DNA of 57,862 bases. Source: Methanobrevibacter sp. (GTDB taxonomy: Archaea; Methanobacteriota; Methanobacteria; Methanobacteriales; Methanobacteriaceae). The position numbers were made by a program, and so were the translations under genes. The DNA is taken from contig JAFZMD010000078.1 of NCBI GenBank assembly GCA_017553445.1, positions 1-57,862 on the forward strand, in the 5' to 3' direction. The notes beneath the pieces were generated by a model that saw nothing but the letters and a program-made list of their open reading frames with translations, ran no database searches and was not told where the DNA came from. Positions 11,926 to 27,001 of this stretch are shown piece after piece. Position 1 is the stretch's first letter. The number at the start of each line of letters is the position of its first letter.

Positions 11926-12134
11926 ATTGTGTTGTCTATATTTCATGCTTAAGCGAAATTGTCAAATTTTGAAAGATTGTTGTCATTTGAAAGTAAATTC
12001 ACTTAAACGTGTAAGTATGATGTATTGTTCTCCAATATTTTCTCATTAATATTTGACCTTTTTGTGGTTTTATATAGTTTTTGTAGCATAATGGACAAAA
12101 ACTATGGATGTAGTTACTATTTTCAAATATGGTA

Positions 12135-12180
12135 GAACGTTTGTTCTTAATATTAATTTTTTATAACGGAACGTTCGTTC
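12135..12180. promoter_or_regulatory. Two operator copies (GAACGTTCGTTC type) upstream of the acetolactate decarboxylase gene
   Basis: GAACGTTTGTTC (12135-12146) and GAACGTTCGTTC (12169-12180), 34 bp apart. Arms GAACG/CGTTC are inverted around TT. They lie about 20 bp upstream of a TATA-like AAATATAAATTT (about 12203) and 60 bp before the start codon. The same 12-mer recurs at 16308 and, inverted, at 20642 and (one mismatch) at 26947. Confidence 0.75.
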
Positions 12181-12240
12181 TCTACATCATTTAATAATCA
12201 TAAAATATAAATTTAATTCTACAATAAGGAGGAAATCACG

Positions 12241-13044
12241 ATGAATAAAAAAATTGTGTTTGCATTGATTGTAGTGGGTTTGCTTGCTGTTTCAGCAGTC
12301 AGCGCTCAGAATTTTTTATTTATAAACAAAAATAATGATGATTCCATGTATCAGGTCTCTTTAATGCAGGCTTTCATGCATGGGGAATATAATGGTGTAA
12401 TCACTGTGGAAGATTTTAAATCACACGGAGATATAGGTCTTGGAACATTTGAGGGTGTAAATGGTGAGATGATAGTTTTGGACGGTGTTGTTTATCAGGC
12501 AGCCGCTGACGGAAGCATTAATGTAATGCCGGATAATGAAACCATACCATTCGCCACAATAACTCACTTTAATGAAGATGCAAAAATTGATAACATTACA
12601 GCCAAGAACTTTGACGATTTAACCGGTCAATTGGACAAGGAAATTGAAAAATATGGTACTAACAACATGTATGTAGTCAAAATCAAAGGTGATTTTTCAA
12701 ACATTACTGTTAGAAGCGTTGAAAAACAGGAAAAACCATATAAGGAATTCACTGAAGTTGCAAAAGTAGACCAAAAGGTATTCAACCACACTGACCAGAC
12801 CGGAACGCTTGTGGCAGTATATTTCCCGGAGTACATGAACGAGTTGAACATGCACGGCTGGCATCTTCATTTCCTGTCTGATGATAAGACAAAAGGAGGT
12901 CATGTCCTAGGATTCAATAATTTTAAGGGATCAGGCCAGATTGATGAAATCCATGAATTCAGTATGATACTTCCAACAGACGATACATTTGCAAAAATGA
13001 ATTTTACTGAAAATATGTCAAGTAAAATCAGTAGTGTAGAATAA
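12241..13044 (+). CDS. budA: Secreted alpha-acetolactate decarboxylase
   Basis: 267 residues with AAGGAGG at 12227-12233 before ATG 12241. Catalyses (S)-2-acetolactate to (R)-acetoin plus CO2. Diagnostic blocks are FKSHGDIGLGTFEGVNGEMI (substrate pocket and glutamate) and GWHLHFLSDDKTKGGHVLGF, whose H-x-H plus H thirteen residues after the first supply the zinc ligands; an arginine in ITVRSVEKQ fits the catalytic Arg. Residues 1-22 are a signal peptide (MNKKIVFALIVVGLLAVSAVSA), so the enzyme is predicted to be exported, as in some Gram-positive homologues. Two GAACGTTCGTTC-type operators control it. No acetolactate synthase is adjacent, so its substrate may come from community members or from branched-chain amino acid synthesis. 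Confidence 0.88.
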   Translation: MNKKIVFALIVVGLLAVSAVSAQNFLFINKNNDDSMYQVSLMQAFMHGEYNGVITVEDFKSHGDIGLGTFEGVNGEMIVLDGVVYQAAADGSINVMPDNETIPFATITHFNEDAKIDNITAKNFDDLTGQLDKEIEKYGTNNMYVVKIKGDFSNITVRSVEKQEKPYKEFTEVAKVDQKVFNHTDQTGTLVAVYFPEYMNELNMHGWHLHFLSDDKTKGGHVLGFNNFKGSGQIDEIHEFSMILPTDDTFAKMNFTENMSSKISSVE

Positions 13045-13074
13045 CTCTTTGAGTTATTCCTTTTTTTATTTTTT
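13039..13074 (+). terminator. Terminator of the acetolactate decarboxylase gene
   Basis: GAATAACTC-TTT-GAGTTATTC, a perfect 9-bp stem that overlaps the stop codon, followed by CCTTTTTTTATTTTTT. Confidence 0.8.
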
Positions 13075-13174
13075 AATTGATTAATACCTTGAACCAAGTG
13101 AAAATTAGCATCTTTTATGATTAGTTAAAAGAAAGAAAAAAGTTTAAATCAAATTAAAGATTTAAATACAAAAA

Positions 13175-13209
13175 TTTTTAAAAAAAATAAAAGCAATCAA
13201 AGATTGCTT
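13175..13209 (-). terminator. Terminator of the DUF308 gene (copy 1)
   Basis: AAGCAATC (13191-13198), AAA loop, GATTGCTT (13202-13209). On the minus strand the stem is followed by a long T-rich tract (13175-13190). The same GCAATC stem terminates the paralogue at 22429-22884. Confidence 0.7.
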
Positions 13210-13214
13210 AATTT

Positions 13215-13670
13215 CTATTCTGAAATATATAATCTTACACCTTGGATGATTAAACATATACCTATAAGAATTGCGACATAAATCGGATTATTAATTGAGA
13301 ATCCTCCAAGGATAAATGCTATAATACCCAGAATTATTATCAATACTGAAGCAATTTTTGACATGTCTTGTCCTGAAAAGAAACCTGCTATACCTAATAG
13401 AATCATTAGAATACCAATTATATAGAATTGTAATCCTAAAAGGAATGATAATGCATCAATGTTGAATATGAATAATAAACCGAATATGATGGCCAGGATT
13501 CCAACAATGACACTTGGGGCTGAAAATCCACCTAATATTGATGCTATACCTAAGAACAGTAAACTTACTCCAATCATGATTGATACTAATTCGGAACTAA
13601 AAATAGGGAAAATTATAAAAATTAATCCTAAAATTATTGACAATATTCCGGATGTTTTATTGGCTTCCAT
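13215..13670 (-). CDS. DUF308 (HdeD-like) small membrane protein, copy 1
   Basis: 151 residues, about six short transmembrane helices in a repeated hairpin pattern (SIILGLIFIIFPIFSSELVSI, then SVIVGILAIIFGLLFIF, then IASVLIIILGIIAFIL), which is typical of DUF308/HdeD proteins. Acid-resistance HdeD of E. coli is a distant relative; no biochemical function is established. GGAGGAAAAAATATGG forms the start context. It is a close paralogue of the protein at 22429-22884 (same length, same start context, same terminator stem). Confidence 0.75.
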   Translation of the reverse strand: MEANKTSGILSIILGLIFIIFPIFSSELVSIMIGVSLLFLGIASILGGFSAPSVIVGILAIIFGLLFIFNIDALSFLLGLQFYIIGILMILLGIAGFFSGQDMSKIASVLIIILGIIAFILGGFSINNPIYVAILIGICLIIQGVRLYISE

Positions 13671-14011
13671 ATTTTTTCCTCCTAATTTTTGTTATGCTCA
13701 CTTTTCAAGTGAAAAAATATAAGAATTCAAAAAGCAACATGCTTTTCACTTTTAGATTATCTTTTATATGCTATTTAATATTTTTTATAAAATAAGGAGT
13801 TATTTCATTTCGTATTGCCCAGTCAACCAAAAAATTAATCGGCTGTCAAATGCTGTTTAATTATGAGGGTTATGTTAAAATAGGAATTGATTCTGATATT
13901 ATTCGGTCATTATCACTAAGAGCCGTGAGTAATTTGATTTGTTATAAAGTGCTGGTATAACTGCAATCAAAAGGTGATGTTATCATTTAAAAAAAGTTTA
14001 AGATGTAGGAA
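13671..14011. other. Intergenic region with a possible startless reading frame
   Basis: No standard gene. On the plus strand 13802-13960 is open for 52 codons (FRIAQSTKKLIGCQMLFNY at the start of the protein-like part) but has no ATG, GTG or TTG near AAGGAG (13794-13799). It may be a gene remnant or chance. Confidence 0.25.
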
Positions 14012-14155
14012 TTAAAATCCTAGTAATCCTAATATTATGGAAATAGCTAATAAAGCTATTGCTATTTTTAATAATGTTTTTAAGCCTTTTACTGCTGCAT
14101 ATATTATTATAGCTACTATTATTATCCAAATAATTTTCATTATCAGATTTATCAT
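14012..14155 (-). CDS. 47-residue hydrophobic membrane protein
   Basis: ATG at 14155 is preceded on the minus strand by AGGGGGC, a usable purine-rich ribosome binding site. The product is almost entirely hydrophobic with two short helices (IIWIIIVAIIIYAA and KIAIALLAISIILGLLGF) joined by the basic turn VKGLKTLLK. It is the last gene of a minus-strand set with 14241-14942 and 14972-16234 (85-bp gap). It is likely co-expressed with those surface proteins. No family recognised. Confidence 0.5.
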   Translation of the reverse strand: MINLIMKIIWIIIVAIIIYAAVKGLKTLLKIAIALLAISIILGLLGF

Positions 14156-14240
14156 ATTTTTAGCCCCCTAATATTATTTCTTTGGAAATTTCTTCTTTTT
14201 TAAATTAAACATTCAATTAATATTCATTTGTTTTTGAGTA

Positions 14241-14942
14241 TTAAATAGGCAACTTTCCGGTGTATTGCTCTATTGTTGTTTTAGCATCATTTAAATTAAC
14301 TCCAGTCTTTTCTTCTACTGTGGATTTAACCTTACTTAAATTAGTATTGTTTGCATAATCATTTGCTTTTGACTGTAAATCTCCAGTCATGTTTTTCACG
14401 CTTGAAATAGTATTTTCTAATTTGGTCTTGTCCGGATAAACATTTTTGTACTCAACTGATTTTGCCATGTGGGCGGCAATGTTCTTGTCATTGCAGCAGA
14501 TCAGGATATTGTCGTGTGTAGTTTCATTAGTTAAAGGAATGCAGTAGAATTTGCCGTTATAATTTACTTTAATGATATCAAATATTTGAATTTTTAATAA
14601 TTCATCAGCATTTATTACATAACATGTAATCCCATCGATATCCTGTTTTTCCCCATTTTTTATTACTTCCTTCAGGGTATTGAATCCTAATTCAGTTACT
14701 TGGATGAAATTTGGGTCCTCGTGATTATTGTATGTAACTAATATTCCGTTGTTCCAATGCCATATTTTGGCCCCTGCAGCATTTCTGTCATATTCTGTCT
14801 GATTGGCAGGAACTTCTATTGTTGTTCCGTTTGGCGTTATATAAATTCTTTCATAATTGACGGTGGTTAACATTAGAAAAATAACGACTGCTGCTATAAT
14901 AAACAGTATTACTCCAATTATAATAATTTTTTCATTCTCCAC
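14241..14942 (-). CDS. Membrane-anchored extracellular protein, unknown family
   Basis: 233 residues. Residues about 5-26 form a signal anchor (KIIIIGVILFIIAAVVIFLM); the remainder is hydrophilic and predicted extracellular. The central part (about 45-160) has several aromatic and cysteine residues (ITCYVI, FYCIPL, ILICCND), which could allow disulfides. The C-terminal 70 residues are a predicted helical, charged, Asn-rich stalk (TISSVKNMTGDLQSKANDYA and following). Sequons such as NQT, NET, NMT and NLS occur. It begins 29 bp after the upstream gene, so it is in the same operon. No function assigned. Confidence 0.55.
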   Translation of the reverse strand: MENEKIIIIGVILFIIAAVVIFLMLTTVNYERIYITPNGTTIEVPANQTEYDRNAAGAKIWHWNNGILVTYNNHEDPNFIQVTELGFNTLKEVIKNGEKQDIDGITCYVINADELLKIQIFDIIKVNYNGKFYCIPLTNETTHDNILICCNDKNIAAHMAKSVEYKNVYPDKTKLENTISSVKNMTGDLQSKANDYANNTNLSKVKSTVEEKTGVNLNDAKTTIEQYTGKLPI

Positions 14943-14971
14943 AGATTCACCTTCATTATTTTTAATGAATA

Positions 14972-16234
14972 TTAATATATTTTTCTTATCCTGTTGTAAA
15001 TAAATGCTCCAATTGTAATAATCACGAATGATGTTATTATAATTACTGCATTTTCAATAGTATTAATCAATAAGTTTCCGGATGATTTCAGGAACTTTAA
15101 ACTTGCTTGAATTAATGACATGATTTGATTGATTATATCAATAATGAAATTTATTAACCCGGACAGCAATCCTAAAATTTGCTGCAGAATTGAGATAATT
15201 GTGGTGATAAGTCCTACAATGACTTCAAATATATATCCAATTAAGTTTAAAAGCTGTTCAAGGACAGTCAATATCATGCACAATATTTTTAAAATCCCGT
15301 CAAGTGTTTCCCATATCAATCCAAGCATCTCTAAAAGTTTTTCAAGGACGTCAACTAAAGTATGGATTTCTTTTATAAAGTCTTTAAACAGGTTTAAAAA
15401 TTCTTCCAGAGTATTTATAAACATCAGATATCCATTTATTAACATGTCGATAATAGGTTTCCAGGAGTCATATAATGCATTGGCAAGGAGAGCAAAATAA
15501 TCATACATGTTATTTAGTAATGTAGCATTTGTTTCATTATCGATTGGCGGAGTTATATTTGTAATGTTGGTTGCATTTGGGATGTTTGGAGTATTTATTG
15601 CAGAGGTTGCATTATTTGTGTCTTTTTTACTATCATCAATTGTTTTAAATGATACTTTATATGCAAAATAATCTGATTCATTACCTGATACGGATTTTAA
15701 AACTTCAAAATCAAAAACACCTTCAACATTATCGTTTATTTTAACAACTTCATGGTCACTTATTTTTTCGTGTGATGCAGCAACAGATGCACCGACTGGG
15801 GTACTGGAAGAACCGGTTTTTACAAAATCCGCTATTATTTTTTCAATTTGGTTTGCTGAATTCTGTTTGAAGCATTCAATTATGGCTAGCTTCAGTGTAT
15901 TTGAATTGCCTACAGTTGATGTAGAGACATGTTTGAATTCATCTCCTGAACTTGCGGGAGGTTTTGAATAATCCAGAATAAATCCTATAAACCCATCACT
16001 AAATGCAATGTAATTTCCATTTCCTTTAGCTAAAATATAGTTATTTTTGGGTTTATTGTCCGTTTTGTTTTTATCGGTTGTCTGGTTATTGTCAGTTGGA
16101 TTATCTTTATCGATTGTTTTGTCATGATCTGTTGTCTTGTTATCATCATTTGTGGTATTGTCCGCTACAACAATACTTAAAAAACAAAAGGAAATTAATA
16201 TAACAATAATTAATGTAACTATTTTTTTATTCAT
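14972..16234 (-). CDS. Secreted/surface protein with an Asp/Asn/Lys/Thr-rich linker and a long helical C-terminus, unknown family
   Basis: 420 residues. A signal peptide (KIVTLIIVILISFCFLSIVVA) is followed by a low-complexity D/N/K/T linker (about residues 25-65), a globular domain (about 66-205) with an AFSDGFIGFILDYSKPPASS segment, a second Asn/Thr-rich spacer, then about 180 residues of continuous amphipathic-hydrophobic helices rich in Leu/Ile with periodic Glu/Asp (for example LEEFLNLFKDFIKEIHTLVD), ending in a transmembrane helix and RIRKIY. The helical part resembles a long stalk or a membrane-associated helical bundle. First gene of a minus-strand operon. The operator GAACGTTCGTTC lies 74 bp upstream, between it and the divergent DUF4013 gene. 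Confidence 0.6.
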   Translation of the reverse strand: MNKKIVTLIIVILISFCFLSIVVADNTTNDDNKTTDHDKTIDKDNPTDNNQTTDKNKTDNKPKNNYILAKGNGNYIAFSDGFIGFILDYSKPPASSGDEFKHVSTSTVGNSNTLKLAIIECFKQNSANQIEKIIADFVKTGSSSTPVGASVAASHEKISDHEVVKINDNVEGVFDFEVLKSVSGNESDYFAYKVSFKTIDDSKKDTNNATSAINTPNIPNATNITNITPPIDNETNATLLNNMYDYFALLANALYDSWKPIIDMLINGYLMFINTLEEFLNLFKDFIKEIHTLVDVLEKLLEMLGLIWETLDGILKILCMILTVLEQLLNLIGYIFEVIVGLITTIISILQQILGLLSGLINFIIDIINQIMSLIQASLKFLKSSGNLLINTIENAVIIITSFVIITIGAFIYNRIRKIY

Positions 16235-16306
16235 ATCATGCCTCTGTATTAATAGTTTATATTATACACATATATTAAATATTACGGCAATTTCAGATAA
16301 TGGTAC

Positions 16307-16320
16307 CGAACGTTCGTTCT
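16307..16320. promoter_or_regulatory. Operator copy (GAACGTTCGTTC) in a divergent promoter region
   Basis: Core 16308-16319 is identical to 12169-12180. It lies between the minus-strand surface operon (start 16234) and the plus-strand DUF4013 gene (start 16404), so it can control both. Confidence 0.75.
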
Positions 16321-16403
16321 TTGGTAATTAGAGGCCTGCTTTAAATTTTAAATACTATTATCTAAAAATATATATCTGTCAAGCAGTTAAGTATGTGATA
16401 AAA

Positions 16404-17210
16404 ATGAATTTACGTGAAATTATAATTGACGCTATTAAATATCCTATTGGCGATACTCGAAAATTTTTAATATTCTGCGCTTTAATTAGTTTAATGAGCT
16501 TATCAACAATTCTCCCATCATACGGCTTTAATAATGATACTGTATCTATTATTCTAAGTATTGTGACATTAATCGTTATGTTTATAGTTTTAGGGTACTT
16601 AGTTGAGGTAATGAAAGGCGGAACTGAAGGTGATGACGCCCTTCCTGATTTTGATTATGTAAAACAATTTATCATTGGCATTAAAGCATTTATTTTAGAC
16701 ATGATTTATTTCATCATACCTGCAGTCATTGTCATAATTGTCGCTTCAGTAACTGGACTGTTTACTTCATTAACTAAAATCGTATATGCCAGTATTGGAG
16801 CCGTAGATAATGGTGCAAGCAATTTCACTATGATAATGGCAACAATTCCCCAATCAACAATGACCACATTCACCAATGCGTTAACTGTTACTTTAATAGT
16901 TGCAATTATATTATTTGTCCTATTTTCATTGATGGCAGTTACAGCTCTGGTCAGATTTGCAAGATTGGGAAGCGGGATTGAAGGTCTGAGATTTAGGGAA
17001 ATACTAAATGACATGTCAAAAGTCGGTTTTGTAAAGATTATAGTTACCTTGATTGTGATTTATATAATTGTAGTTGCTTTGACAGTTGTTATCGGGCTGA
17101 TTGGATTGATTCCGGATATTGGTGTTTTCATAGGCATTTTTGTCGTAGTGCCTTTCATACTCTTGTTTTTATATAGGGCTATCGGTTTATTGTATGCTGA
17201 TACACAATAA
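16404..17210 (+). CDS. DUF4013 domain-containing membrane protein
   Basis: ATG 16404 is chosen over GTG 16395 because GTGAT at 16395-16399 then acts as ribosome binding site; 268 residues. About six transmembrane helices. The pattern DAIKYPIGDTRKFLIFCALI at the N-terminus, a GGTEGDDALPDFDYVKQFIIGIK segment near residue 75 and an RF..L...GIEGLRFREI loop match the DUF4013 family common in methanogens. The family has no known biochemical role. The divergent operator at 16308 links it to the TetR-controlled set. Confidence 0.75.
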   Translation: MNLREIIIDAIKYPIGDTRKFLIFCALISLMSLSTILPSYGFNNDTVSIILSIVTLIVMFIVLGYLVEVMKGGTEGDDALPDFDYVKQFIIGIKAFILDMIYFIIPAVIVIIVASVTGLFTSLTKIVYASIGAVDNGASNFTMIMATIPQSTMTTFTNALTVTLIVAIILFVLFSLMAVTALVRFARLGSGIEGLRFREILNDMSKVGFVKIIVTLIVIYIIVVALTVVIGLIGLIPDIGVFIGIFVVVPFILLFLYRAIGLLYADTQ

Positions 17211-17492
17211 TAAAAAACATTAAATATCAAGTTACATGGGGTAGTTATGCTAAAATGAAAAAAAGCAAATGCTTAAGCATTTACTACTCTAATTTCTGAT
17301 TAATTTTTCACTAGTCAAATTACTTCTTTTATTTTTGATATAGCTACAATTAAAATTAAACATTAAAGAATTGTTTTAATTTTAAGGAAAGTTATTTGCC
17401 ATTAACGGACACATATTCCTAAATTTATAAATTTTAATTCATTAAGTATATATATATCAAACAGTTTACAAAGTCATTTTTCAAAAATATGC

Positions 17493-18884
17493 TCATGCGT
17501 TGCTGTATTTTTTAAGAAATATTAATGCAATAATGACCGTTGCAATAACTGAAATCACATTGGCAATCATTGAAGGCAATCTTAAACATTCTGGAGCCTG
17601 CAGAATATATCCGAATGCAATTAATGTGCACACAATTGCCGGAATCAATGCAATAACATATGGTTTTTCATTATTGCTGAGATAAGCGCTTGCAGCATAT
17701 AATACTATTGTAGCCACTATTAATTGAGACACTGCAAAATATCTCCAAATCAAACTGAAATCAACAAAAGTTAATCCGAATGCCACTAAAAACAATGGCA
17801 CAGCAATTTTCAGTCTTGAAATTAGTTTTTCATGGTTGAGATTGAGTTCATCGGCAATTGTTATTCTTGAGCTTCTAAGTGCCGTATCGCCTGATGTAAT
17901 TGGACAGATGACAACCCCGATAATAGTTAAAACCAAACCGACAGGTCCAACTAATGTTTTTGCCATTTCATAAACTGCTACTGAAGGTGTTGCACCATAG
18001 ATTACTGCAAGCTGAGGCTGTCCGTGGAAAAATGCCATTGCAATTGCAGCCCAAACAAGAGCAACCAAACCTTCCAAAACCATGGCGCCATAGAATACTG
18101 GTCTGGTATCGTTCTCATTTTCAATGCATCTTGCAACAATTGGGGATTGGGATGCATGGAAACCTGAAACGGCACCGCAGGCAATTGTAATAAACAGATA
18201 TGGGAAAATGCTCTTGTCAGTTAAATACAAACCTTGTGTTGTGAACTCAGGAATGGAGTATGATGGATTTAAGATCAATGCTCCAATCATCAGCACTGCC
18301 ATAATTAACAATAATGCTCCAAAAACAGGATATATTTTCCCGATGATTTTATCAACCGGAAATACGGTTGCAATCAAAAAGTAAATGAATATTATTGTTA
18401 CCCAAATAAGTATAGGAATACTAGTTATGTCTGTGAGCAAACCGGCAGCTCCTTTTGCAAATGTGGCTGAAACAAAAATTCCCGTAATTACAATAAGGAC
18501 TGCCATGAACTTTTGAATTTTAGTACCCAGATATTTTGAAATAATGCTGGGCATTGTGAATCCGTCATTTCGCACGGACATGAATCCTGAGAAGAAGTCA
18601 TGAACTCCTCCAATGAAAATTGTACCCAGTACAATCCATAGGAATGCAGCAGGACCGAACAATGCTCCTTGTATTGCTCCAAAAATAGGTCCCAAACCGG
18701 CAATATTTAAAAAATGAACTAAAAAGTTCTTGATTTTAGACATTGGCATATAATCAACACCATCCTGCAGTCTAAATGCAGGTGTTTGGTGGGTTTCATC
18801 AACCCCAGAAATCTTTTCAAGGAATTTTCCATAAACAAAGTACGAAGCAACCAATGCCAGAACACAAATAATAAAACTATACAT
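17493..18884 (-). CDS. CstA-family carbon starvation/peptide transporter
   Basis: 463 residues, about 13 transmembrane helices. Conserved CstA segments are present: NIAGLGPIFGAIQGALFGP (about residues 61-79), GGVHDFFSGFMSVRNDG (about 92-108), ACGAVSGFHASQSPIVARCI near residue 240, and PITSGDTALRSSRITIAD near 335. It is the short form of the family (E. coli CstA is about 700 residues). Bacterial CstA/BtsT import peptides or pyruvate; substrate here is not predictable. Neither a terminator nor an operator of the GAACG type was seen near it. Confidence 0.85.
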   Translation of the reverse strand: MYSFIICVLALVASYFVYGKFLEKISGVDETHQTPAFRLQDGVDYMPMSKIKNFLVHFLNIAGLGPIFGAIQGALFGPAAFLWIVLGTIFIGGVHDFFSGFMSVRNDGFTMPSIISKYLGTKIQKFMAVLIVITGIFVSATFAKGAAGLLTDITSIPILIWVTIIFIYFLIATVFPVDKIIGKIYPVFGALLLIMAVLMIGALILNPSYSIPEFTTQGLYLTDKSIFPYLFITIACGAVSGFHASQSPIVARCIENENDTRPVFYGAMVLEGLVALVWAAIAMAFFHGQPQLAVIYGATPSVAVYEMAKTLVGPVGLVLTIIGVVICPITSGDTALRSSRITIADELNLNHEKLISRLKIAVPLFLVAFGLTFVDFSLIWRYFAVSQLIVATIVLYAASAYLSNNEKPYVIALIPAIVCTLIAFGYILQAPECLRLPSMIANVISVIATVIIALIFLKKYSNA

Positions 18885-19134
18885 GAAAGTATATTTGATT
18901 TTTGATTTTAAAAATATTTGCAGAACAGATGTTTTGGTACTGTCAAATCTTTTTGCAGAAATCGTTTCAATTTATTAAAGAATAGTTCTTTTTTAATTGA
19001 ATGTTTCAAAAACAATGTCTGCTCCCACATAGGACAGTTCAAAGAAAATAAAGCAAACAAATATCCAGATATCAAATATGCCATAAACAGCAAGTCGGGA
19101 TACTACAATCTTCATTACAAAATGATATTCAAAA
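18885..19134. other. Intergenic region without a recognisable gene
   Basis: Short open frames on both strands here show no family motif or ribosome binding site. They probably belong to the same decayed DNA as 19135-19320. Confidence 0.3.
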
Positions 19135-19320
19135 AATAATTTAAAAATCTGTTTTCCGTCCGGGTTGGAATTAGTTCATGACCTATTGTGGCATTAGTTA
19201 AAACATTGTCAAAAGCATTTAATTTTGTCGACCCTTCATCTTTTCCAGAACTATTGATATTCTCAGTATACGCCCATTTTTGCTCTTTCAAATAGTTCTT
19301 CAGTATGAATTTTTTAGAAA
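19135..19320 (-). pseudogene. Open coding-like remnant, unidentified
   Basis: On the minus strand a frame is open from about 19320 to the stop near 19135, containing LKEQKWAYTENINSSGKDEG and, further on, FDNVLTNATIGHELIPTRTE. It has protein-like composition but no start codon with ribosome binding site, and its 5' side runs into the TetR gene at 19355. I read it as a leftover gene fragment; no family recognised. Confidence 0.3.
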
Positions 19321-19354
19321 AATAAATGGATTGAAAAGATTAAAAAAATTGTTT

Positions 19355-19957
19355 TTACTGGCATTTGATGGCCTGCCAGGTCATTTCAAAGTTTTTCTCA
19401 AAAATGGAATCAATATCCTCATTTGGAAAAGATAACCAAATGCCTTGAATTCCCATATACATGATATACAATGATTGGGCAATGTTTTTACTTGGGAAGT
19501 CTTTTCTGATTTCATTTTGCCTTTTGCCGTCTTCTACAAGGCCGGTTAAAAATAATTCAATATCATTTCCTGTTTGTAAAATTATCCGGTTAACCTCATC
19601 ATTGGCATATCCTGTTGAGGTTAAAAGAATTAACACTGTCCCATAACTGATTTTTTCATCGATGCTTTCAATTTCCACACCGTCTATGAAGTGATGTAAA
19701 ATATAAAACAGTGCATCATGGATTCTGTCCCTTGATGAACCTTCAAAAGGGATTTTATCAAAATCAATTTTAATATAATCCACCATATACTTTTGCATAA
19801 TTGCTTCAAATAGGTCTCTTTTATCTGAAAAATGATAATATATGCCGCCGGTTGTAAGTCCTGTGCAATTTCGAATTTCACTAATTGAAATATCGATTGT
19901 GCCTTTATCCAATATCAATTTCAGCGTTTTTTCAACAATCAAGTCTTTAGTGTTCAT
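19355..19957 (-). CDS. TetR/AcrR family transcriptional regulator, tandem copy 1
   Basis: 200 residues. The N-terminal DNA-binding domain reads ISEIRNCTGLTTGGIYYHFS followed by DKRDLFEAIMQ, the standard TetR helix-turn-helix. The N-terminus MNTKDLIVEKTLKLILDKG parallels that of the upstream neighbour (MNTKKLILEKTLKLMIEKE), and similarity continues (SIDEKISYGTVLILLTSTGYANDE against SIDDEIDYRIILSVLTAKGY), so the two arose by duplication. The gap between them is 32 bp, consistent with one transcript. One or both are the best candidates to bind the GAACGTTCGTTC operator. Confidence 0.9.
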   Translation of the reverse strand: MNTKDLIVEKTLKLILDKGTIDISISEIRNCTGLTTGGIYYHFSDKRDLFEAIMQKYMVDYIKIDFDKIPFEGSSRDRIHDALFYILHHFIDGVEIESIDEKISYGTVLILLTSTGYANDEVNRIILQTGNDIELFLTGLVEDGKRQNEIRKDFPSKNIAQSLYIMYMGIQGIWLSFPNEDIDSIFEKNFEMTWQAIKCQ

Positions 19958-19989
19958 CTAACCACATTATGTTTTTAATAGTTAATTTA

Positions 19990-20598
19990 TTATTCTCTGA
20001 ATCTTATCTTTTCCCATTCCAAATTAAAAATATCTTCAAAGACTGAAATCATATCATTAATTATAAACATCTCCCATTTATATTGAATTCCCCAGTACAT
20101 GATAATTAATGACTCTACAATGTCTTCGGTTGAGAAGTCTTGTCTGATCTGTCTGTTTTTTTGACCTTCCTTAATAATTTCTGTGAAAAATTCTATTAAT
20201 TCTTTTAGGGCATTTTGGACTGACTCCAGGGTATTTTCATGAACATATCCTTTTGCAGTCAAAACTGACAATATGATTCTGTAGTCGATTTCATCATCAA
20301 TTGATTCAATTTTGATTCCGGTTTCCTTTTGCTTAAACATCTCAGCCAGGACATCGTGGATTTTCTCTTTTGCATTTCCCTTTATCTGGCGGAGTTTGTC
20401 AATGTTGAATTTGTAATAGTTAATATAGTATCTTTCAATAATTTCATTATATATCTCTTCTTTATTTGAAAAATAGTGATATATTCCACCAATAGCAATT
20501 CCTGAGGCATCACTGATTTCTCTAATTGAAATGATGGAGTTTTCCTTTTCAATCATTAATTTTAAAGTCTTTTCTAAAATTAATTTTTTTGTATTCAT
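19990..20598 (-). CDS. TetR/AcrR family transcriptional regulator, tandem copy 2
   Basis: 202 residues. Helix-turn-helix ISIREISDASGIAIGGIYHY followed by FSNKEEIYNEII. The C-terminal half is helical, as expected for the ligand-binding and dimerisation domain. It is the first gene of the pair. An operator palindrome AGAACGAACGTTCT lies 42 bp upstream of its start codon, shared with the divergent MFS gene at 20862. This is the classic arrangement of a TetR repressor autoregulating itself and an efflux pump. Confidence 0.9.
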   Translation of the reverse strand: MNTKKLILEKTLKLMIEKENSIISIREISDASGIAIGGIYHYFSNKEEIYNEIIERYYINYYKFNIDKLRQIKGNAKEKIHDVLAEMFKQKETGIKIESIDDEIDYRIILSVLTAKGYVHENTLESVQNALKELIEFFTEIIKEGQKNRQIRQDFSTEDIVESLIIMYWGIQYKWEMFIINDMISVFEDIFNLEWEKIRFRE

Positions 20599-20640
20599 AC
20601 ATTTAATAATTATATTTTTTATACTTATTAAATAATGTAG

Positions 20641-20654
20641 AGAACGAACGTTCT
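20641..20654. promoter_or_regulatory. Operator copy (AGAACGAACGTTCT) between the TetR pair and the MFS gene
   Basis: Arms AGAACG/CGTTCT around AA, a perfect 6+2+6 inverted repeat; the reverse complement contains the 12-mer GAACGTTCGTTC seen at 12169 and 16308. Placed to control both divergent transcripts. Confidence 0.8.
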
Positions 20655-20861
20655 GTAATGTGGAAAATTTGTATAAATAACAAATGTTTTGTTATGTTGG
20701 AAAATGCTAATTAAATTCATAGTTTTTATTCATTAAGCATCATAAACTTTATAAAACAATAAAATAATAAATATTAGCAAGAAAAATATTGAACATCTAA
20801 ATCAACATTATTTGTTAGTATTTTCTTAAAATTTTTATATTGATGTGGAGGATTAATAGAC

Positions 20862-22373
20862 ATGAATGAAACTCTTAAGGAACACTCATGGATTCCATTG
20901 ATATTGGTGGCCTGTGCTTCATTTATTATAACATTGGATGCTACATTCATGAATGTTAGTATTTCCAAGGTTGTAGTTGACCTGCATACTGATGTGAGTA
21001 CCATTCAATTGATCATGTCCTTTTATACTCTGATTACCGCAGCATTCATGCTCCTGAGTACCAAACTTCAGGACATAGTCGGTAAAAAGAAACTGTTTAT
21101 TATCGGTACAATGCTTTATGGTGTCGGTACATTTACTGCAGCAATAAGTTGGGATACTGGAGTATTATTTATCGGATGGGCATTGATTGAAGGTATTGCA
21201 GGAGCATTAATGACGCCTGCTACTGTTTCTCTTATAAGTGGAATATATCATGGTGAACAACGTACATTTGCTTTGGCAATTGAAAGTGTAATGGTTTCCA
21301 TTTCCGCTGCTGTCGGTCCACTGTTCGGTGGGGTCATGACAACATTCTTCAGTTGGAGATGGGGATTCGCAATTGAATTAATATTTGTAATCTTTATTTT
21401 AGTGATGCAAAGTAAAATACCTGACTTTGAACCTACCGAATCCAGAAGCGATTTGGATATTACTGGTGCTATAATTTCATTAATAGGACTTGTCTTGTTC
21501 GTATGGGGTATTTTAATGCTGACAAAAGATACATCTACCAGCGTAATGGTAATCGTTGCAGGTTTAGTTATCTTGGCAGCATTTGCATGGTTTGAAAGCA
21601 GAAGAAAAAGTAACGGTAAAGTGCCGTTACTTGATATGGGATTATTCAAAGACAGAAATTTACGTGTAGGAGCAATCATTAGATTGATAGGTTGTCTTGC
21701 TATGGGAGGAGCATTGTTTGCTGTTTCCCTGTTCCTGCAAAGTGTAATGCAGTTAAATGCATTAAATACAGGTTTGACCACACTACCTATGACTATAGGT
21801 CTGCTTATTTTTGCAATAGCAGCCCCAAGTTTGTCTACTAAATTTAGTCATAAGACACTCATTGCAGTAGGATCTTTAATCGCAATCGCCGGATGTGTGA
21901 TTTTAAGCTTCCAATTCAGATTGAATACATCAATGTATGATTTAATGCCTGGCTTGTTTGTATTGGGTGCTGGACTTGGTTTTGTAATGTCTTTAAGTAC
22001 AGATATTTCATTGGCCAATATTCCTGAGGAAAATGAAAACAATGCATCCGGGGTTCTTACAACCACACAGACATTAGGTGAATCAATGGGTACGGCAATT
22101 ATTGGAGTAATTTTAATTCTTGGAGTTATGGGAGGTTTAAGCACTGCAATCGATATGTATGCACCAGACCATTCAGGTGACGCAAAATTCTTTGATGATG
22201 CAGCAAATTACCTCCAAGCAGCCGGTACTGATAATATTACACAGGACAGCACTGTTATGAAAGCTGTAGATACCATTATTCAGGAAGCCATGGGATTCGT
22301 GATGATAGTAACGACTATTCTGCTGGCAGTTGTATTTATTGCAACGCTGCGGCTGCAGCCGAAAAAACAATGA
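20862..22373 (+). CDS. MFS drug exporter, DHA2 (14-TMS, EmrB/QacA-like) family, copy 1
   Basis: 503 residues, GTGGAGG at 20844-20850 before ATG 20862. About 14 transmembrane helices. Motifs: LDATFMNVSISKVVVDL (D1-type motif in helix 1), LQDIVGKKKLFIIG (motif A loop between helices 2 and 3), GIAGALMTPATVSLISGIY (helix 4) and GPLFGGVMTTFFSWRWGFAI (motif C, antiporter signature). Expected to export hydrophobic or amphiphilic compounds in exchange for cations. The TetR-operator-MFS arrangement upstream supports inducible export of the TetR ligand. Terminated by a hairpin overlapping the stop codon. Confidence 0.9.
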   Translation: MNETLKEHSWIPLILVACASFIITLDATFMNVSISKVVVDLHTDVSTIQLIMSFYTLITAAFMLLSTKLQDIVGKKKLFIIGTMLYGVGTFTAAISWDTGVLFIGWALIEGIAGALMTPATVSLISGIYHGEQRTFALAIESVMVSISAAVGPLFGGVMTTFFSWRWGFAIELIFVIFILVMQSKIPDFEPTESRSDLDITGAIISLIGLVLFVWGILMLTKDTSTSVMVIVAGLVILAAFAWFESRRKSNGKVPLLDMGLFKDRNLRVGAIIRLIGCLAMGGALFAVSLFLQSVMQLNALNTGLTTLPMTIGLLIFAIAAPSLSTKFSHKTLIAVGSLIAIAGCVILSFQFRLNTSMYDLMPGLFVLGAGLGFVMSLSTDISLANIPEENENNASGVLTTTQTLGESMGTAIIGVILILGVMGGLSTAIDMYAPDHSGDAKFFDDAANYLQAAGTDNITQDSTVMKAVDTIIQEAMGFVMIVTTILLAVVFIATLRLQPKKQ

Positions 22374-22400
22374 GAGTTTAACTCTCATTTTCATTTTTTT
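22369..22400 (+). terminator. Terminator of MFS copy 1
   Basis: AATGAGAG (22369-22376), TTTAA loop, CTCTCATT (22382-22389), then TTCATTTTTTTAT. The stem overlaps the stop codon. Confidence 0.75.
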
Positions 22401-22428
22401 ATATAATTAAATTTTTGGAGGAAAAAAT

Positions 22429-22884
22429 ATGGAGTCAAATCAAATATCTGGAATATTATCAATAATTTTGGGATTGATTTTTTTAATTTGTCCTATTTTT
22501 AGTACTGCATTTTTATCTATTTTTATTGGGTTGAGTTTAATATTCTTTGGTATAGCTTTTATACTATCCGGATTTTCAGCAGCCAATATAATTATTGGAA
22601 TTCTTGCCATCCTGGTTGGGCTGGTATTCGTATTTAATATTGCCGCATTATCATTCGTTTTCGGATTACAATTCTATATCATTGGTATCCTAATGATTAT
22701 AGCAGGTATTGTTGGTATTTTTTCAGATTCACAATTTGGAAAAATCGCTTCTATATTCCTTATAATTTTAGGTATAATATCCTTTGCTCTTGGAGGATTT
22801 TCAATCGATCAGCCTCTTTTCGCTGCAATCCTTATAGGTGTAGCTTTAATCGTCCAGGGTGTAAAATTATATCTGCTGGAATAG
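22429..22884 (+). CDS. DUF308 (HdeD-like) small membrane protein, copy 2
   Basis: 151 residues with GGAGGAAAAAATATGG as start context, identical to copy 1 at 13215-13670. Near-identical hydrophobic hairpins: SIILGLIFLICPIFSTAFLSI, then NIIIGILAILVGLVFVF, then IGILMIIAGIVGIFS. The two proteins align along their whole length. This copy sits in the TetR/MFS cluster between the two exporters; copy 1 follows the acetolactate decarboxylase gene. A role in envelope stress is plausible from HdeD but unproven. Confidence 0.75.
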   Translation: MESNQISGILSIILGLIFLICPIFSTAFLSIFIGLSLIFFGIAFILSGFSAANIIIGILAILVGLVFVFNIAALSFVFGLQFYIIGILMIIAGIVGIFSDSQFGKIASIFLIILGIISFALGGFSIDQPLFAAILIGVALIVQGVKLYLLE

Positions 22885-22893
22885 AAGTTTAAT

Positions 22894-22927
22894 AAAGCAA
22901 TCTTTTGATTGCTTTTTTTATTTTTTT
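22894..22927 (+). terminator. Terminator of the DUF308 gene (copy 2)
   Basis: AAAGCAATC (22894-22902), TTTT loop, GATTGCTTT (22907-22915), then a T-rich run. The stem core GCAATC/GATTGC is the same as that of copy 1. Confidence 0.8.
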
Positions 22928-22985
22928 AAAAGTTTTGTATTAACTTTTTTTAATAATGCAGTACGCATGAGGATTTGGTGAAAAG

Positions 22986-24386
22986 ATGAATGTCAAATTA
23001 AACAACCGGACTTCGCTATTGGTATTGTTTATTCTAGCCGCAAGTCTGGTAACAATAGCCCAATCAATTATTACAACAGGAGTTGTTTATCTGATGGGTG
23101 ACTTTTCTGTCTCATCAACACAGGCACAGTGGTCCTATTCCGCATTTTTGCTTGTTGTGGGAGTTATGATTCCTTTAAGTGCTTATATATCACGCAGATT
23201 CAGTGCAAGAACAATATTTTTCTTTTCATTAACCATATTCCTTTTGGGATCCATCATATGCTATTTTTCAACTTCATTAATTGTGTTGATTATTGGTAGG
23301 GTTCTTCAGGCTATTGGAAACGGCATTATAATGCCTTATGTCCAGATTTTGCTCTTGAGAACCATCCCTGAAGAAAAATGGCAAACATATATGGGATTAT
23401 ACGGTTTGGTTGTTGCAATAGCGCCGGTCGTCGGTTCATTTATAGGCGGATTTGTAATAACATTATATGGCTGGAGAGAACTGTTTTCGTTTTTTACAGT
23501 CGCCACGATAATCATTTTGGTTTTAGGCATATTTTCTGTAAAGGACAACACTCCTAGTGAAGATTATCCTCTCGACTATTTGTCTGTTGTATTGTCAGTG
23601 ATTGGATGTTCAGGAGTGATGCTTGGCTTTACAAATGTTGCGGATTATGGATTTACACATTATCTGGTAATTTTGCCGATAATTATTGGGATTATAACTT
23701 TAATTCTATTTGTAAAACGTCAATCAAAATTGGATAAACCTTTGATTAACTTGTCCATACTTAAAAACAAGTATTTCCTGGTGGGCACAACATTTATCTG
23801 CATTCTCTTTTCATGCTTGAACGGATGTACTGCACTTATCCCAATATTCATTCAGGGCGTAGCCTACAATTCAGCAATTATTTCAGCATCAGTGCTTCTG
23901 CCTGGAGGATTAATGATAATTATTTTTAATATCATAGGCCCATTGCTTACAAATAGAATAGGAATCAAAAAGGTCCTGATTATGGGGTGTATTGTTTCCA
24001 TAATGGGATTTGCAACAATGATGTTCTATACTCAGGATTCCTCCTTTGAATTCATGACCATAACTCAGTCAATCCGTCTTATCGGTGCGGGGTTGGTTCT
24101 GATGCCTGCCACAACATGGACATTGACCATGGTATCGGATAAGGTGGAGGACGGAACTGCAGTAAACAATACCCTAAGACAGATTTTTGCAGCAATCGGA
24201 TCATCAGTTGTAGTTGTTATAGTTGCTGTTTTGGCAGGAGGTGCTATAGACCACAATATCGCATCAGTTACAGCATTCAACCAGACTGCACTGATTCTTC
24301 TGGTTTTACATGTCGTGATGCTTATTTTGACCATATTATTCATTGATGATAAGGACAAAATTGAAAATTCGAATACGGCCGCATAA
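22986..24386 (+). CDS. MFS exporter, DHA2 family, copy 2
   Basis: 466 residues; GGTGA at 22977-22981 before ATG 22986. About 14 transmembrane helices. The second periplasmic loop and helix 4 show GRVLQAIGNGIIMPYVQILL, and motif C is APVVGSFIGGFVITLYGWRE. It differs clearly from copy 1 and ends in a charged tail (DDKDKIENSNTAA). It should be a cation-coupled exporter of lipophilic compounds or drugs. It is followed 162 bp later by the NBD-less ABC-like gene. No GAACG operator is present directly upstream, so it either reads through from upstream or has its own control. Confidence 0.88.
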   Translation: MNVKLNNRTSLLVLFILAASLVTIAQSIITTGVVYLMGDFSVSSTQAQWSYSAFLLVVGVMIPLSAYISRRFSARTIFFFSLTIFLLGSIICYFSTSLIVLIIGRVLQAIGNGIIMPYVQILLLRTIPEEKWQTYMGLYGLVVAIAPVVGSFIGGFVITLYGWRELFSFFTVATIIILVLGIFSVKDNTPSEDYPLDYLSVVLSVIGCSGVMLGFTNVADYGFTHYLVILPIIIGIITLILFVKRQSKLDKPLINLSILKNKYFLVGTTFICILFSCLNGCTALIPIFIQGVAYNSAIISASVLLPGGLMIIIFNIIGPLLTNRIGIKKVLIMGCIVSIMGFATMMFYTQDSSFEFMTITQSIRLIGAGLVLMPATTWTLTMVSDKVEDGTAVNNTLRQIFAAIGSSVVVVIVAVLAGGAIDHNIASVTAFNQTALILLVLHVVMLILTILFIDDKDKIENSNTAA

Positions 24387-24548
24387 CTATACTGACTACT
24401 TCTCCAACGGATTATTCTATCAGAAGCTATTAAAAGTTCAACCGATACGAAAATAAAAATCAAATAAAATAATAACAGAATGAACCAAGAAGCAAAACAA
24501 TCCATATTACACCGATTGACAATTATATATTTATTAGTTAAAAACAAA

Positions 24549-26543
24549 ATGATTATTATGAGAAAGTTTTTGAAGGTTTCATTGAAATTCCAATGGAAGA
24601 CAATATTGGTTATTTTCGCTTTGATAGTTATTCAGACATTCTTTCAAATGGAAATAATTGATTTGTTCAGTACGGCTTTGACTGGTGTTAAAGAACAGAA
24701 TATCGATTTGCTTGTCAAATCCGGATCATACATGTTATTGTATACGGTCATTTCAGTGATTTCCATTTATGTCATTTCATTTCTCTCAACAAGAGTGGCT
24801 TCAAATGCAGCATATACGGTCCGTGAGAAAATATTTCATATACTGATGAACTTGCCTGGTGAGGAAATTGCCAACTTTAAAATTTCAGGGCTAACTACAA
24901 GGTCAACCAGAGGGATGTCCTCAGAACAGGGCTTTATAGTGATAATACTCACACAATTAATGCTGGTTCCAGTTACACTCGTAGCAATTATTTATGAAAT
25001 AGCATTGATTGATACGACTTATGCGATATTCTTCTTGGTATTTGTCGGTGTTCTTGCAATGATTCTAATTTTTAGAATGAAACAAATTGTAAAAATATTT
25101 TTCAGAGCCAAAAAGACATACGGAAAACTGAACCTGATGTTTTTATCCAAAATCAGTGATATTGCAGGCAGGATTCCATTCAATAAACAGGAGTATGAAG
25201 AGGAATTTGAAAAGGCATGTGAGAATTCCTATGACAAGAACGTCACCTATATTTTAAGCCAATATTACCTTGGGCCGGTATTATTATGGGGTTTATATGC
25301 CATTGTTCTGATTACATTTGCAATGGTTAATTCCGGATACACCATTGGCTTTGAAACCGACAGTGTTGTGGATTCATTCATTATTCTGATATATGTTGCC
25401 TACTTCGTCAGTACTCTGACGTTTCTGCCGGCATTAATTGACAGGTGGCCACGTGCATATGCCACTTCTGTGCGTCTGGAGGAAGTCCTGAATCTGGAAG
25501 ATAAAACCATAAAATCCAAAAACACTGATAATCCAAAAAGAATAGAAATTGTAGAGGAAGATGTTTCCTGGCATGATATGGGCATATGGGCTGAAAGAAG
25601 GGAAATCTCTCAAAAATTCACTTTAATATTGAAGGATGACCGAGCCAAAGTAGGAATATCAATGATTTTACTTACGGTATCCACATTGTGCATGGTTTAT
25701 GCCCCTAAAGTTGCAGGAAAGACTGTTAATTTATTGAGTTCCAATGTGAATTCATCCAACGATGCTGCCATCTACATTAACCTGGCCTTGCTTTTGGTAT
25801 TATATTCTGCAGGGTATCTCTTAAAATTAACTCCAAAGAGAATCATGGGGATTACCGGTGAAAAAGTGGCCTATAATTTAAGAATGGGATTATTTGACAA
25901 GATTGATGCTGTCGGATCTACTTTCATTCAGGAAAACTCAAAGGGTCTCATCATGTCCAGATTAAACAACGACGTGATGAACATCAGGGAGTTTGTCTCT
26001 TCCAAAATTTCTGAACTTTATGCGCAAATCCTATCGATAGTCCTTGTAATAGTACTGATGATGACGACAGACTTCAGATTGAGCTTAATTTATTTGGCGA
26101 TATTGCCTGTTTATATCATTTCCTTTTATTTATGCGATTATAAATCTAAAGACTATTATGATGGTCATCAAAAGCATTTGGGGCGTATGATGAGCTATTT
26201 TGAAAGAGGTCTTACAAATCGTGATTCATTCCATGAAAAAGGGTTTAAAAAACTCAACCAAACTGTAATTGACTATTATGCCAAATCCAGAAACGTTACT
26301 AATATTATGGAGCCTGTTACAACCCTTTTGACAAATGTGAGCAATATAACTGTTTATATGGCGGGCATTTACTTTTTATCAGTTGGTGAAATACAGCTGG
26401 GAACTCTATTGGCGGTTATCATGTATGGGCAGTTATTGACTAAACCTATTAAAAAACTAAGCACCTCTATGGCGTCTATTGAAACTGCATTTTCAAGCAT
26501 CAAAAGAATATTTGCTATTATTGACTATCGAAAAGAGGAATGA
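24549..26543 (+). CDS. Fused double transmembrane domain of an ABC exporter, lacking both nucleotide-binding domains
   Basis: 664 residues from ATG 24549 (24558 or 24480 are alternatives). A TATA-like TTATATATTT at 24523-24532 predicts a transcript starting almost at 24549-24558, so the mRNA may be leaderless. First half (to about residue 320): a type I ABC exporter TMD with the coupling-helix region LPGEEIANFKISGLTTRSTRGM and the terminal linker ALIDRWPRAYATSVRLEEVL. Where the ATPase should begin there is only RIEIVEEDVSW, then the sequence jumps into a second TMD (LKDDRAKVGISMILLTVSTL, IMSRLNNDVMNIREFVSSKI, GTLLAVIMYGQLLTKPIKKL) that ends at IFAIIDYRKEE, exactly before its ATPase. No Walker A, Q-loop, LSGGQ or Walker B is present here or downstream. 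Partner ATPase, regulator or decayed transporter: undecided. Confidence 0.8.
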   Translation: MIIMRKFLKVSLKFQWKTILVIFALIVIQTFFQMEIIDLFSTALTGVKEQNIDLLVKSGSYMLLYTVISVISIYVISFLSTRVASNAAYTVREKIFHILMNLPGEEIANFKISGLTTRSTRGMSSEQGFIVIILTQLMLVPVTLVAIIYEIALIDTTYAIFFLVFVGVLAMILIFRMKQIVKIFFRAKKTYGKLNLMFLSKISDIAGRIPFNKQEYEEEFEKACENSYDKNVTYILSQYYLGPVLLWGLYAIVLITFAMVNSGYTIGFETDSVVDSFIILIYVAYFVSTLTFLPALIDRWPRAYATSVRLEEVLNLEDKTIKSKNTDNPKRIEIVEEDVSWHDMGIWAERREISQKFTLILKDDRAKVGISMILLTVSTLCMVYAPKVAGKTVNLLSSNVNSSNDAAIYINLALLLVLYSAGYLLKLTPKRIMGITGEKVAYNLRMGLFDKIDAVGSTFIQENSKGLIMSRLNNDVMNIREFVSSKISELYAQILSIVLVIVLMMTTDFRLSLIYLAILPVYIISFYLCDYKSKDYYDGHQKHLGRMMSYFERGLTNRDSFHEKGFKKLNQTVIDYYAKSRNVTNIMEPVTTLLTNVSNITVYMAGIYFLSVGEIQLGTLLAVIMYGQLLTKPIKKLSTSMASIETAFSSIKRIFAIIDYRKEE

Positions 26544-26943
26544 TTGGATTTTTAATCATGTTAATATAAAAAGGAACTTATAAACCTTTATTTATTTTTT
26601 TAATTTGGATAAGTGTAAAACTTCAAGGATAAATTTTTTTTATATTCGATGCAAAGGATTTAATCCGTATTATAATAATTGTGCATTCTCGCATATTTGA
26701 TATATGCTTTAATGGTTGATTTCAGTTGTTTTTTTTTAAGTTTGAATGTTAAAATTGATGTCAATTAAATCTTATTGTAAATTTCGCTTTTCTCTTGTTT
26801 TTTTTTGCTTTTAAAGCATTGTTTGTAAGAATTCATTTAAATTATCAATTAAAAAAATAATGCTATATATTTATTAATAATCAAAAATAAAACTCTATAT
26901 TAAGTATTGTAATTATTCACAATGCATATGTAAGTATTAATGA
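26544..26943. other. Upstream region of the giant adhesin
   Basis: Very AT-rich spacer without reading frames of note. It carries the promoter region of the adhesin and ends in the operator at 26944-26961. No terminator hairpin was seen after the ABC-like gene. Confidence 0.4.
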
Positions 26944-26961
26944 ACAGAACGAATGTTCTGT
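26944..26961. promoter_or_regulatory. Operator copy upstream of the giant adhesin
   Basis: ACAGAACGAATGTTCTGT, a perfect 7+4+7 inverted repeat, 40 bp before the adhesin start codon. Its reverse complement contains GAACATTCGTTC, one base from the 12-mer shared by the other sites. Confidence 0.7.
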
Positions 26962-27001
26962 CATATTACTTGATTTTTAGACAATATGAGGTATTTTTAA
27001 A

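What the first reader, a model, noticed from the sequence alone, without database searches (positions are those of the whole stretch)
12135..26961. A five-site operator regulon linking decarboxylase, surface operon, TetR/MFS and giant adhesin
Seen: the 12-mer GAACGTTCGTTC occurs at 12169 and 16308, and inverted at 20642; single-mismatch versions occur at 12135 and (inverted) 26947. All five are inverted repeats located in promoter regions: secreted acetolactate decarboxylase, surface operon/DUF4013 divergent promoter, TetR pair/MFS divergent promoter, giant adhesin. A specific 12-mer is expected far less than once in this window by chance. Known: TetR proteins bind such palindromes and autoregulate beside efflux pumps. 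Inference: one or both tandem TetR proteins coordinate export, envelope proteins and adhesion in response to one small molecule.
Basis: partly seen in the sequence, partly recalled or inferred. Interest (0 to 1): 0.75.

Follow-up and report, generated by a model that had tools for sequence, protein, structure and literature searches.

The report
TetR-pair operator regulon for archaeal adhesin
A rumen methane-producing archaeon carries a short DNA address tag that a pair of TetR-type switch proteins almost certainly reads; across related species the tag, the switch pair and one giant surface adhesin are inherited together, which gives a concrete candidate for how these microbes turn a sticky surface protein on and off.

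Summary
Three exact and two one-mismatch copies of GAACGTTCGTTC lie at the stated positions (shuffles: 0.05 expected). All five are intergenic, in four promoter regions, and are five of only six such sites in the 1.96-Mb genome (a Methanobrevibacter from the rumen). Comparative tests that could have refuted the idea supported it. In 139 family genomes the exact 12-mer occurs in 25 of 28 genomes with the upstream TetR (TetR-A) and 1 of 111 without. All 34 TetR-A genes with upstream DNA carry the operator, typically 42-43 nt before the start, usually with a weaker second copy about 36 bp further out. The extended operator is an 18-bp palindrome, ACAGAACGWWCGTTCTGT. Acetolactate decarboxylase and MFS genes carry it almost only inside the TetR-linked cluster. 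Most likely this is a compact, autoregulated TetR-pair regulon controlling surface adhesion plus locally recruited transport and envelope genes, probably by repression. DNA binding, repression and ligand are inferred.

The parts
12132..12149 (+). distal (weaker) operator of the ALDC promoter, core GAACGTTTGTTC 12135-12146
   Evidence: matrix score 13.6; the two-operator layout also seen at most TetR-A promoters
12166..12183 (+). proximal operator of the ALDC promoter, core GAACGTTCGTTC 12169-12180, 60 nt before the ATG
   Evidence: same position (58 nt) in G013 and G059
12190..12197 (+). TATA-like TTTAATAA, in a roughly 30-bp stretch shared with the TetR-A promoter
   Evidence: alignment; promoter role inferred
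12241..13044 (+). acetolactate decarboxylase (267 aa) with an N-terminal signal-like segment
   Evidence: Pfam PF03306 E=8e-74; TIGR01252 above cut-off
14241..14942 (-). 233-aa protein without a Pfam/NCBIfam match, downstream of the 420-aa gene
   Evidence: homologues in 3 other genomes
14972..16234 (-). 420-aa protein without a family match, 73 nt from operator 16308
16305..16322 (+). operator between the 420-aa gene and the DUF4013 gene
   Evidence: operators between the same two genes in G018, G020 and G027
16404..17210 (+). DUF4013 protein (268-271 aa, start GTG 16395 or ATG 16404)
   Evidence: PF13197 E=1e-23
19355..19957 (-). TetR-B (200 aa), second gene of the TetR pair
   Evidence: PF00440; 37% identical to TetR-A; found with TetR-A in all 35 pairs, gaps 9-34 nt
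19990..20598 (-). TetR-A (202 aa), first gene of the pair and best candidate operator-binding protein
   Evidence: PF00440; operator upstream of all 34 copies with upstream DNA
20625..20632 (-). TATA-like TTTAATAA of TetR-A, about 9 bp from the operator
   Evidence: conserved in the alignment; promoter role inferred
20639..20656 (-). proximal operator of TetR-A (43 nt) and MFS (208 nt), ACAGAACGTTCGTTCTCT
   Evidence: score 30.9
20678..20689 (-). degenerate distal operator AAACATTTGTTA, 36 bp from the proximal one
   Evidence: sequence; the equivalent operator scores clearly at 29 of 34 TetR-A promoters in the set
20862..22373 (+). DHA2-type MFS efflux transporter (503 aa), divergent from TetR-A
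   Evidence: PF07690; best NCBIfam TIGR00711 EmrB, below its cut-off
26944..26961 (-). operator of the giant adhesin, ACAGAACATTCGTTCTGT, 43 nt before the ATG
   Evidence: site 26-58 nt (mostly 42-43) from the start in 14 other genomes
27002..41011 (+). giant adhesin-like protein (4669 aa) with signal-like N-terminus, beta-helix and Ig-like domains
   Evidence: Pfam; subfamily distribution

Best explanation
The five sites are operators of the tandem TetR pair at 19355-20598. A TetR-A dimer (possibly with TetR-B) binds the 18-bp palindrome ACAGAACGWWCGTTCTGT. It controls its own operon and a dedicated giant adhesin, plus neighbouring genes that in this lineage lie in the same cluster: secreted acetolactate decarboxylase, DUF4013 and 420-aa surface genes, and probably the MFS exporter. 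The likely action is repression. At TetR-A and ALDC the operator lies next to the upstream side of a TATA-like element, where a bound dimer would block TFB/TBP; at the adhesin it lies downstream of the TATA-like region, near the expected start of transcription. A small molecule, perhaps a substrate of the MFS, would release the repressor. Shown by computation: sites, positions, co-inheritance, conservation. Inferred: binding, repression, effector.
For: (1) Exact 12-mer in 25/28 family genomes with the TetR and 1/111 without, Fisher P = 3e-23; the one exception is inside a gene. (2) All 34 full-length TetR-A genes with upstream DNA have the operator at near-constant distance (mostly 42-43 nt) and constant orientation; where there is no exact copy, one or two bases have changed. 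(3) Only four places in the genome match the 18-bp palindrome, all in this cluster. (4) Matrix hits in fetched loci: 5/112 in ORFs versus 87% ORF coverage. (5) The adhesin subfamily co-occurs with the TetR (26/28 vs 2/39, P = 5e-14), and 25 of those 26 have an operator upstream (the 26th starts off its contig). (6) Out-of-sample test: the adhesin of G017, on a contig where no TetR was found, has ACAGAACGAACATTCTGT 42 nt before its start. (7) ALDC and MFS orthologues checked in TetR-negative genomes have no site, 0/7 and 0/11. (8) Three loci keep an exact operator beside MFS though the adjacent TetR is a remnant, while an intact pair sits elsewhere in each genome.
Against: No binding or expression data. 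Most ALDC and MFS orthologues outside the cluster lack the operator even in TetR-positive genomes, so these genes are not obligate targets. The operator lies upstream of the TATA-like element at TetR-A/ALDC, a position also used by archaeal activators, so the sign of control is not settled. TetR-B could be the binder or a partner. Point 8 is biased, because those loci were found by the exact 12-mer.
Confidence: 0.8

Rival explanations
1. The TetR pair activates some or all of these promoters (upstream-bound activator), or acts in opposite directions at TetR/ALDC and at the adhesin.
For: At TetR-A and ALDC the operator lies just upstream of the TATA-like TTTAATAA, and there are often two operators about 36 bp apart.
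Against: Most characterised TetR proteins are repressors (general knowledge); at the adhesin the operator lies downstream of the TATA-like region, a repressing position. TATA and start positions are inferred.
Confidence: 0.15
2. TetR-A and TetR-B act as a heterodimer, or divide proximal and distal operators, so the regulon integrates two signals.
For: The two genes are always together (35 pairs, gaps 9-34 nt), co-diverge (r = 0.64), and both have conserved HTHs with different recognition helices. Every GAACGWWCGTTC in the genus has TT/AA at its centre, never AT/TA. Most TetR-A promoters have two operators.
Against: The operator arms are symmetric, both orientations occur at adhesin promoters, and a central AA/TT step can be a shape preference of a homodimer.
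Confidence: 0.3
3. Another regulator reads the sites, for instance the second TetR in the window (9524-10138) or a global factor.
For: There is another TetR gene in the window.
Against: No homologue of that TetR was found in the fetched loci around the sites; the site follows TetR-A across the family and is all but absent from TetR-A-negative genomes; sites are not genome-wide.
Confidence: 0.04
4. The sites are copies of a dispersed repeat or mobile-element end, not operators.
For: The ALDC and TetR-A sites share about 30 bp of flank, so promoter segments may have been copied.
Against: Outside the shared ALDC/TetR flank, surrounding sequences differ between targets while the palindrome is kept; distances to start codons are nearly fixed; sites are nearly absent from coding DNA.
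Confidence: 0.03

Closest known systems
FadR_Sa of Sulfolobus acidocaldarius (PMC6449355)
   Same: Archaeal TetR-family regulator with semi-palindromic operators, only four genomic binding sites, and a compact local gene cluster (30 kb) under control, including its own promoter region.
   Different: FadR_Sa controls lipases and beta-oxidation and responds to acyl-CoA. Here the targets are a giant adhesin, ALDC, surface proteins and transporters; the regulators are a tandem pair; sequence relation is only general TetR level (6el2, E = 4e-6, residues 6-95).
TetR/DHA2-MFS pairs such as QacR/QacA (general knowledge)
   Same: A TetR gene next to a DHA2-type efflux gene with a palindromic operator between them; the MFS resembles EmrB/QacA models.
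   Different: Two TetR genes, and in many relatives the divergent neighbour is the adhesin, not the MFS.
IcaR of staphylococci (TetR repressor of the ica biofilm operon; general knowledge)
   Same: A TetR protein controlling a cell-surface adhesion function; IcaR appears among the distant HTH matches (2zcm).
   Different: Different domain of life and target (polysaccharide synthesis versus a giant protein adhesin); no specific homology.
Adhesin-like proteins of Methanobrevibacter ruminantium M1 (PMC2812497, PMC5816558)
   Same: Large surface proteins; six rise in co-culture with Butyrivibrio and many rise under lauric acid.

Membership tests
TetR-family regulators | N-terminal TetR_N helix-turn-helix | tested here: met
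   PF00440 above cut-off in both proteins
TetR-family regulators | all-helical C-terminal ligand/dimer domain | tested here: inconclusive
   all-helical model whose best PDB matches are TetR proteins (52 matches with E <= 0.001), but mean pLDDT 64 and weak C-terminal confidence
TetR-family regulators | palindromic operator of about 15-20 bp at its own promoter | tested here: met
   18-bp palindrome upstream of all 34 TetR-A genes with upstream DNA
TetR-family regulators | measured DNA binding released by a ligand | not testable with these tools
   needs purified protein
FadR_Sa-type local archaeal TetR regulon | few genomic sites confined to one cluster | tested here: met
   5 of 6 sites with up to one mismatch, and all four 18-mer places, lie in the window
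FadR_Sa-type local archaeal TetR regulon | targets are fatty-acid metabolism genes | tested here: not met
   targets are ALDC, DUF4013/surface genes, MFS and adhesin
FadR_Sa-type local archaeal TetR regulon | acyl-CoA effector | not testable with these tools
   ligand unknown
TetR/DHA2 efflux pair (QacR-like) | efflux pump sharing the operator region in every copy | tested here: not met
   MFS is the divergent neighbour in only part of the copies; the adhesin is in many others

The most novel reading that the evidence does not exclude
A dedicated two-protein (TetR-A/TetR-B) chemical sensor is co-inherited with one giant adhesin in rumen methanogens and switches cell-surface attachment, extracellular acetoin formation and efflux together in response to a compound in the rumen. 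The two TetR proteins would work as a heterodimer or as a two-input switch on double operators.
Probability: 0.25. Interest if true: 0.72.

Novelty: new member of a known kind. Interest (0 to 1): 0.55.

Why it matters
Methanobrevibacter genomes can carry dozens to over a hundred adhesin-like genes (105 in M. ruminantium M1, PMC2812497), and attachment to partner microbes is thought to matter for methane production. In the literature searched here I found no dedicated regulator for any of them. This module supplies a named regulator pair, a defined operator and a named adhesin, testable in vitro without growing the organism. It also adds a well-supported local TetR regulon in Archaea, where few are characterised.

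Tried and rejected
Chance: rejected by shuffles and by whole-genome counts. Genome-wide regulon: rejected, because no further strong sites exist. The sixth own-genome site (C36) and the G029 site lie inside ORFs and are treated as chance. The second TetR of the window as reader of the sites: rejected. ALDC and MFS as obligate targets: tested and rejected. TetR-A structure: the AlphaFold model was too weak (pLDDT 64) to suggest a ligand; PDB matches are a mixed bag of drug, fatty-acid and redox regulators. Literature: no relevant paper holds the 12-mer; none joins acetolactate decarboxylase with Methanobrevibacter; a search for GAACGTTC with TetR and palindrome listed only unrelated papers. Rfam: no match in 11000-27300.
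Full report
OBSERVATION. The 12-mer GAACGTTCGTTC is present exactly at 12169, 16308 and, inverted, at 20642; one-mismatch copies are at 12135 and, inverted, at 26947. Dinucleotide shuffles of the window give 0.00 exact and 0.05 one-mismatch matches on average, and none of 100 reaches the observed numbers. In the whole genome of 1.96 Mb there are six sites with up to one mismatch; five lie in this window and the sixth is inside an ORF. The extended palindrome ACAGAACGWWCGTTCTGT with up to three mismatches hits four places in the genome, all here. All five window sites are intergenic: two before ALDC (60 and 94 nt), one between the 420-aa gene and DUF4013 (73 and 84 nt), one before TetR-A (43 nt; MFS 208 nt) and one before the adhesin (43 nt).

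WHAT THE ORGANISM IS. Relatives of TetR-A are found in goat, roe deer and other rumen or gut Methanobrevibacter assemblies, and the genus-level matches are the same contigs. The window is therefore taken as a contig of a Methanobrevibacter genome, 91% complete. The context is archaeal, with TBP/TFB promoters, not sigma-70.

THE REGULATOR. TetR-A (202 aa) and TetR-B (200 aa) both carry TetR_N and are 37% identical to each other. In the fetched loci there are 35 TetR-A/TetR-B pairs, always adjacent with gaps of 9-34 nt, and their divergence is correlated (r = 0.64). The HTH part is more conserved than the C-terminal part in both (A: 82% vs 71% mean pairwise identity; B: 87% vs 73%).

CO-OCCURRENCE TEST. 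The exact 12-mer was sought in 139 genomes of the family and TetR-A in the same genomes. 28 genus members have the TetR (two of them only as fragments, G028 and G032); 25 of these have the exact 12-mer. Of 111 genomes without a close TetR-A, one has it, and that copy is inside an ORF (G029). Fisher P = 3e-23. The three TetR-positive genomes without an exact copy still have the operator at the same place: GAACGTTCGTTA in G049, GAACGCTTGTTC in G050, GAACGGTTGTTC in G055. A close TetR-A and the exact 12-mer are confined to one genus within the family.

GEOMETRY. All 34 full-length TetR-A genes with upstream DNA have the operator, in the same orientation and mostly 42-43 nt before the start. In 29 of the 34 a second, weaker copy scores upstream, usually 34-37 bp further out; in the window it is degenerate (AAACATTTGTTA, 20678-20689), but the ALDC promoter has the same double layout (34 bp). 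Downstream of the TetR-A and ALDC operators is a conserved stretch, CTACATYATTTAATAA, with a TATA-like TTTAATAA about 9 bp away. At the adhesin the operator has different flanks and lies about 42 nt before the start, downstream of a TATA-like region. TATA boxes and start sites are inferred.

PREFERENCE FOR INTERGENIC DNA. A symmetric matrix built from 42 distinct sites gives 112 hits at score 10 or more in 760 kb of fetched loci; 5 fall in ORFs of at least 100 aa, and three of these lie in over-extended TetR-A reading frames. ORFs cover 87% of the DNA.

TARGETS. Window targets recur in other species. The operator between DUF4013 and the 420-aa gene recurs in G018, G020 and G027. The ALDC operator recurs at 58 nt in G013 and G059, and ALDC is also divergent from TetR-A in G017 and G018. 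The TetR-A/MFS intergenic operator recurs in many genomes. The adhesin operator recurs 26-58 nt (mostly 42-43) from the start in 13 other genomes, plus G017 found later at 42 nt. In nine further genomes the adhesin is divergent from TetR-A and shares its operator region (G003, G010, G016, G027, G040, G050, G053, G054, G055).

THE ADHESIN IS THE CONSTANT PARTNER. A 600-residue part of the adhesin (residues about 467-1067) finds 64-77% identical homologues, generally one per genome, in 28 genomes: 26 of the 28 TetR-positive and 2 of 39 TetR-negative (P = 5e-14). The four exceptions (G032, G039, G045, G056) are assemblies of 75-87% completeness. Of the 26, 25 have an operator upstream of the adhesin (in G028 about 530 nt away); the adhesin of G019 starts off its contig. 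ALDC and MFS are looser. Among 12 ALDC orthologues checked outside the fetched clusters in TetR-positive genomes only two (both in G028) have a site; among MFS orthologues outside the cluster only one of nine; in TetR-negative genomes none. These genes are thus members mainly when they sit in the cluster.

TRANS-ACTION. In G027, G039 and G040 an exact operator remains beside an MFS gene although the adjacent TetR is a remnant, while an intact pair lies on another contig. This suggests the operator serves the MFS and is read in trans. These loci were found through the exact 12-mer, so the retention is biased; no TetR remnant was found at the other MFS loci checked.

MECHANISM. Best supported: TetR-A (perhaps with TetR-B) binds the 18-bp palindrome, represses its own operon and the adhesin, and is released by an unknown ligand. 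Co-inheritance and operator positions are shown; binding, repression and ligand are inferred. The centre is always TT/AA in GAACGWWCGTTC sites across the genus. This may be a shape preference or a sign of a heterodimer; both orientations occur at adhesins, which argues against a strict heterodimer polarity.

KNOWN SYSTEMS. The nearest functional parallel is FadR_Sa of Sulfolobus: a TetR protein with four genomic sites that represses a 30-kb cluster (PMC6449355). The target class and tandem arrangement differ. Adhesin-like genes of M. ruminantium respond to co-culture and to lauric acid (PMC2812497, PMC5816558), but no dedicated regulator was found in the passages read. No paper in the library links this 12-mer to a regulator.

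VERDICT. A real, evolutionarily conserved and compact TetR-pair regulon, predicted with high confidence. It is a new member of a known kind (local TetR regulons), of specialist interest because it gives a testable handle on adhesin control in methanogens.

Noticed in passing
24480-26543 (+): A 687-aa protein whose C-terminal part matches an ABC exporter membrane region (two ABC_membrane stretches) but with no match to an ABC ATPase domain; relatives of about 661 aa are 92-93% identical in several species and lie just upstream of the adhesin.
   Followed up: partly
20740-20862 (+): The 5' untranslated region of the MFS gene holds an imperfect inverted repeat (AAGAAAAATATTG ... AGTATTTTCTTAA) between the TATA-like element and the Shine-Dalgarno, kept in relatives with varying loop length; no Rfam match.
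   Followed up: partly
19355-26543 and relatives L074-L109: Transporter neighbours (MFS, CstA, ABC-like, ALDC) are often 90-96% identical between species where the linked TetR pair is only 71-84% and the adhesin 50-71% identical, so the regulators seem to evolve faster than the genes beside them.
   Followed up: no
9524-10995 (+): A separate TetR gene followed by a CAAX-protease-like (Rce1) gene, apparently unrelated to the GAACGTTCGTTC sites.
   Followed up: partly
L075:2038-2979, L076, L107, L109: In related clusters a 313-aa sodium/bile-acid symporter family protein sits near CstA or the ABC-like gene, a faint hint that the sensed compound could be an organic acid or bile-acid-like.
   Followed up: no
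G013:C44 and G060:C8 (L076, L109): Tandem duplication of the whole TetR-A/TetR-B pair, each copy with its own operator; the paralogous pairs fall in different TetR-A clades but share one operator.
   Followed up: partly
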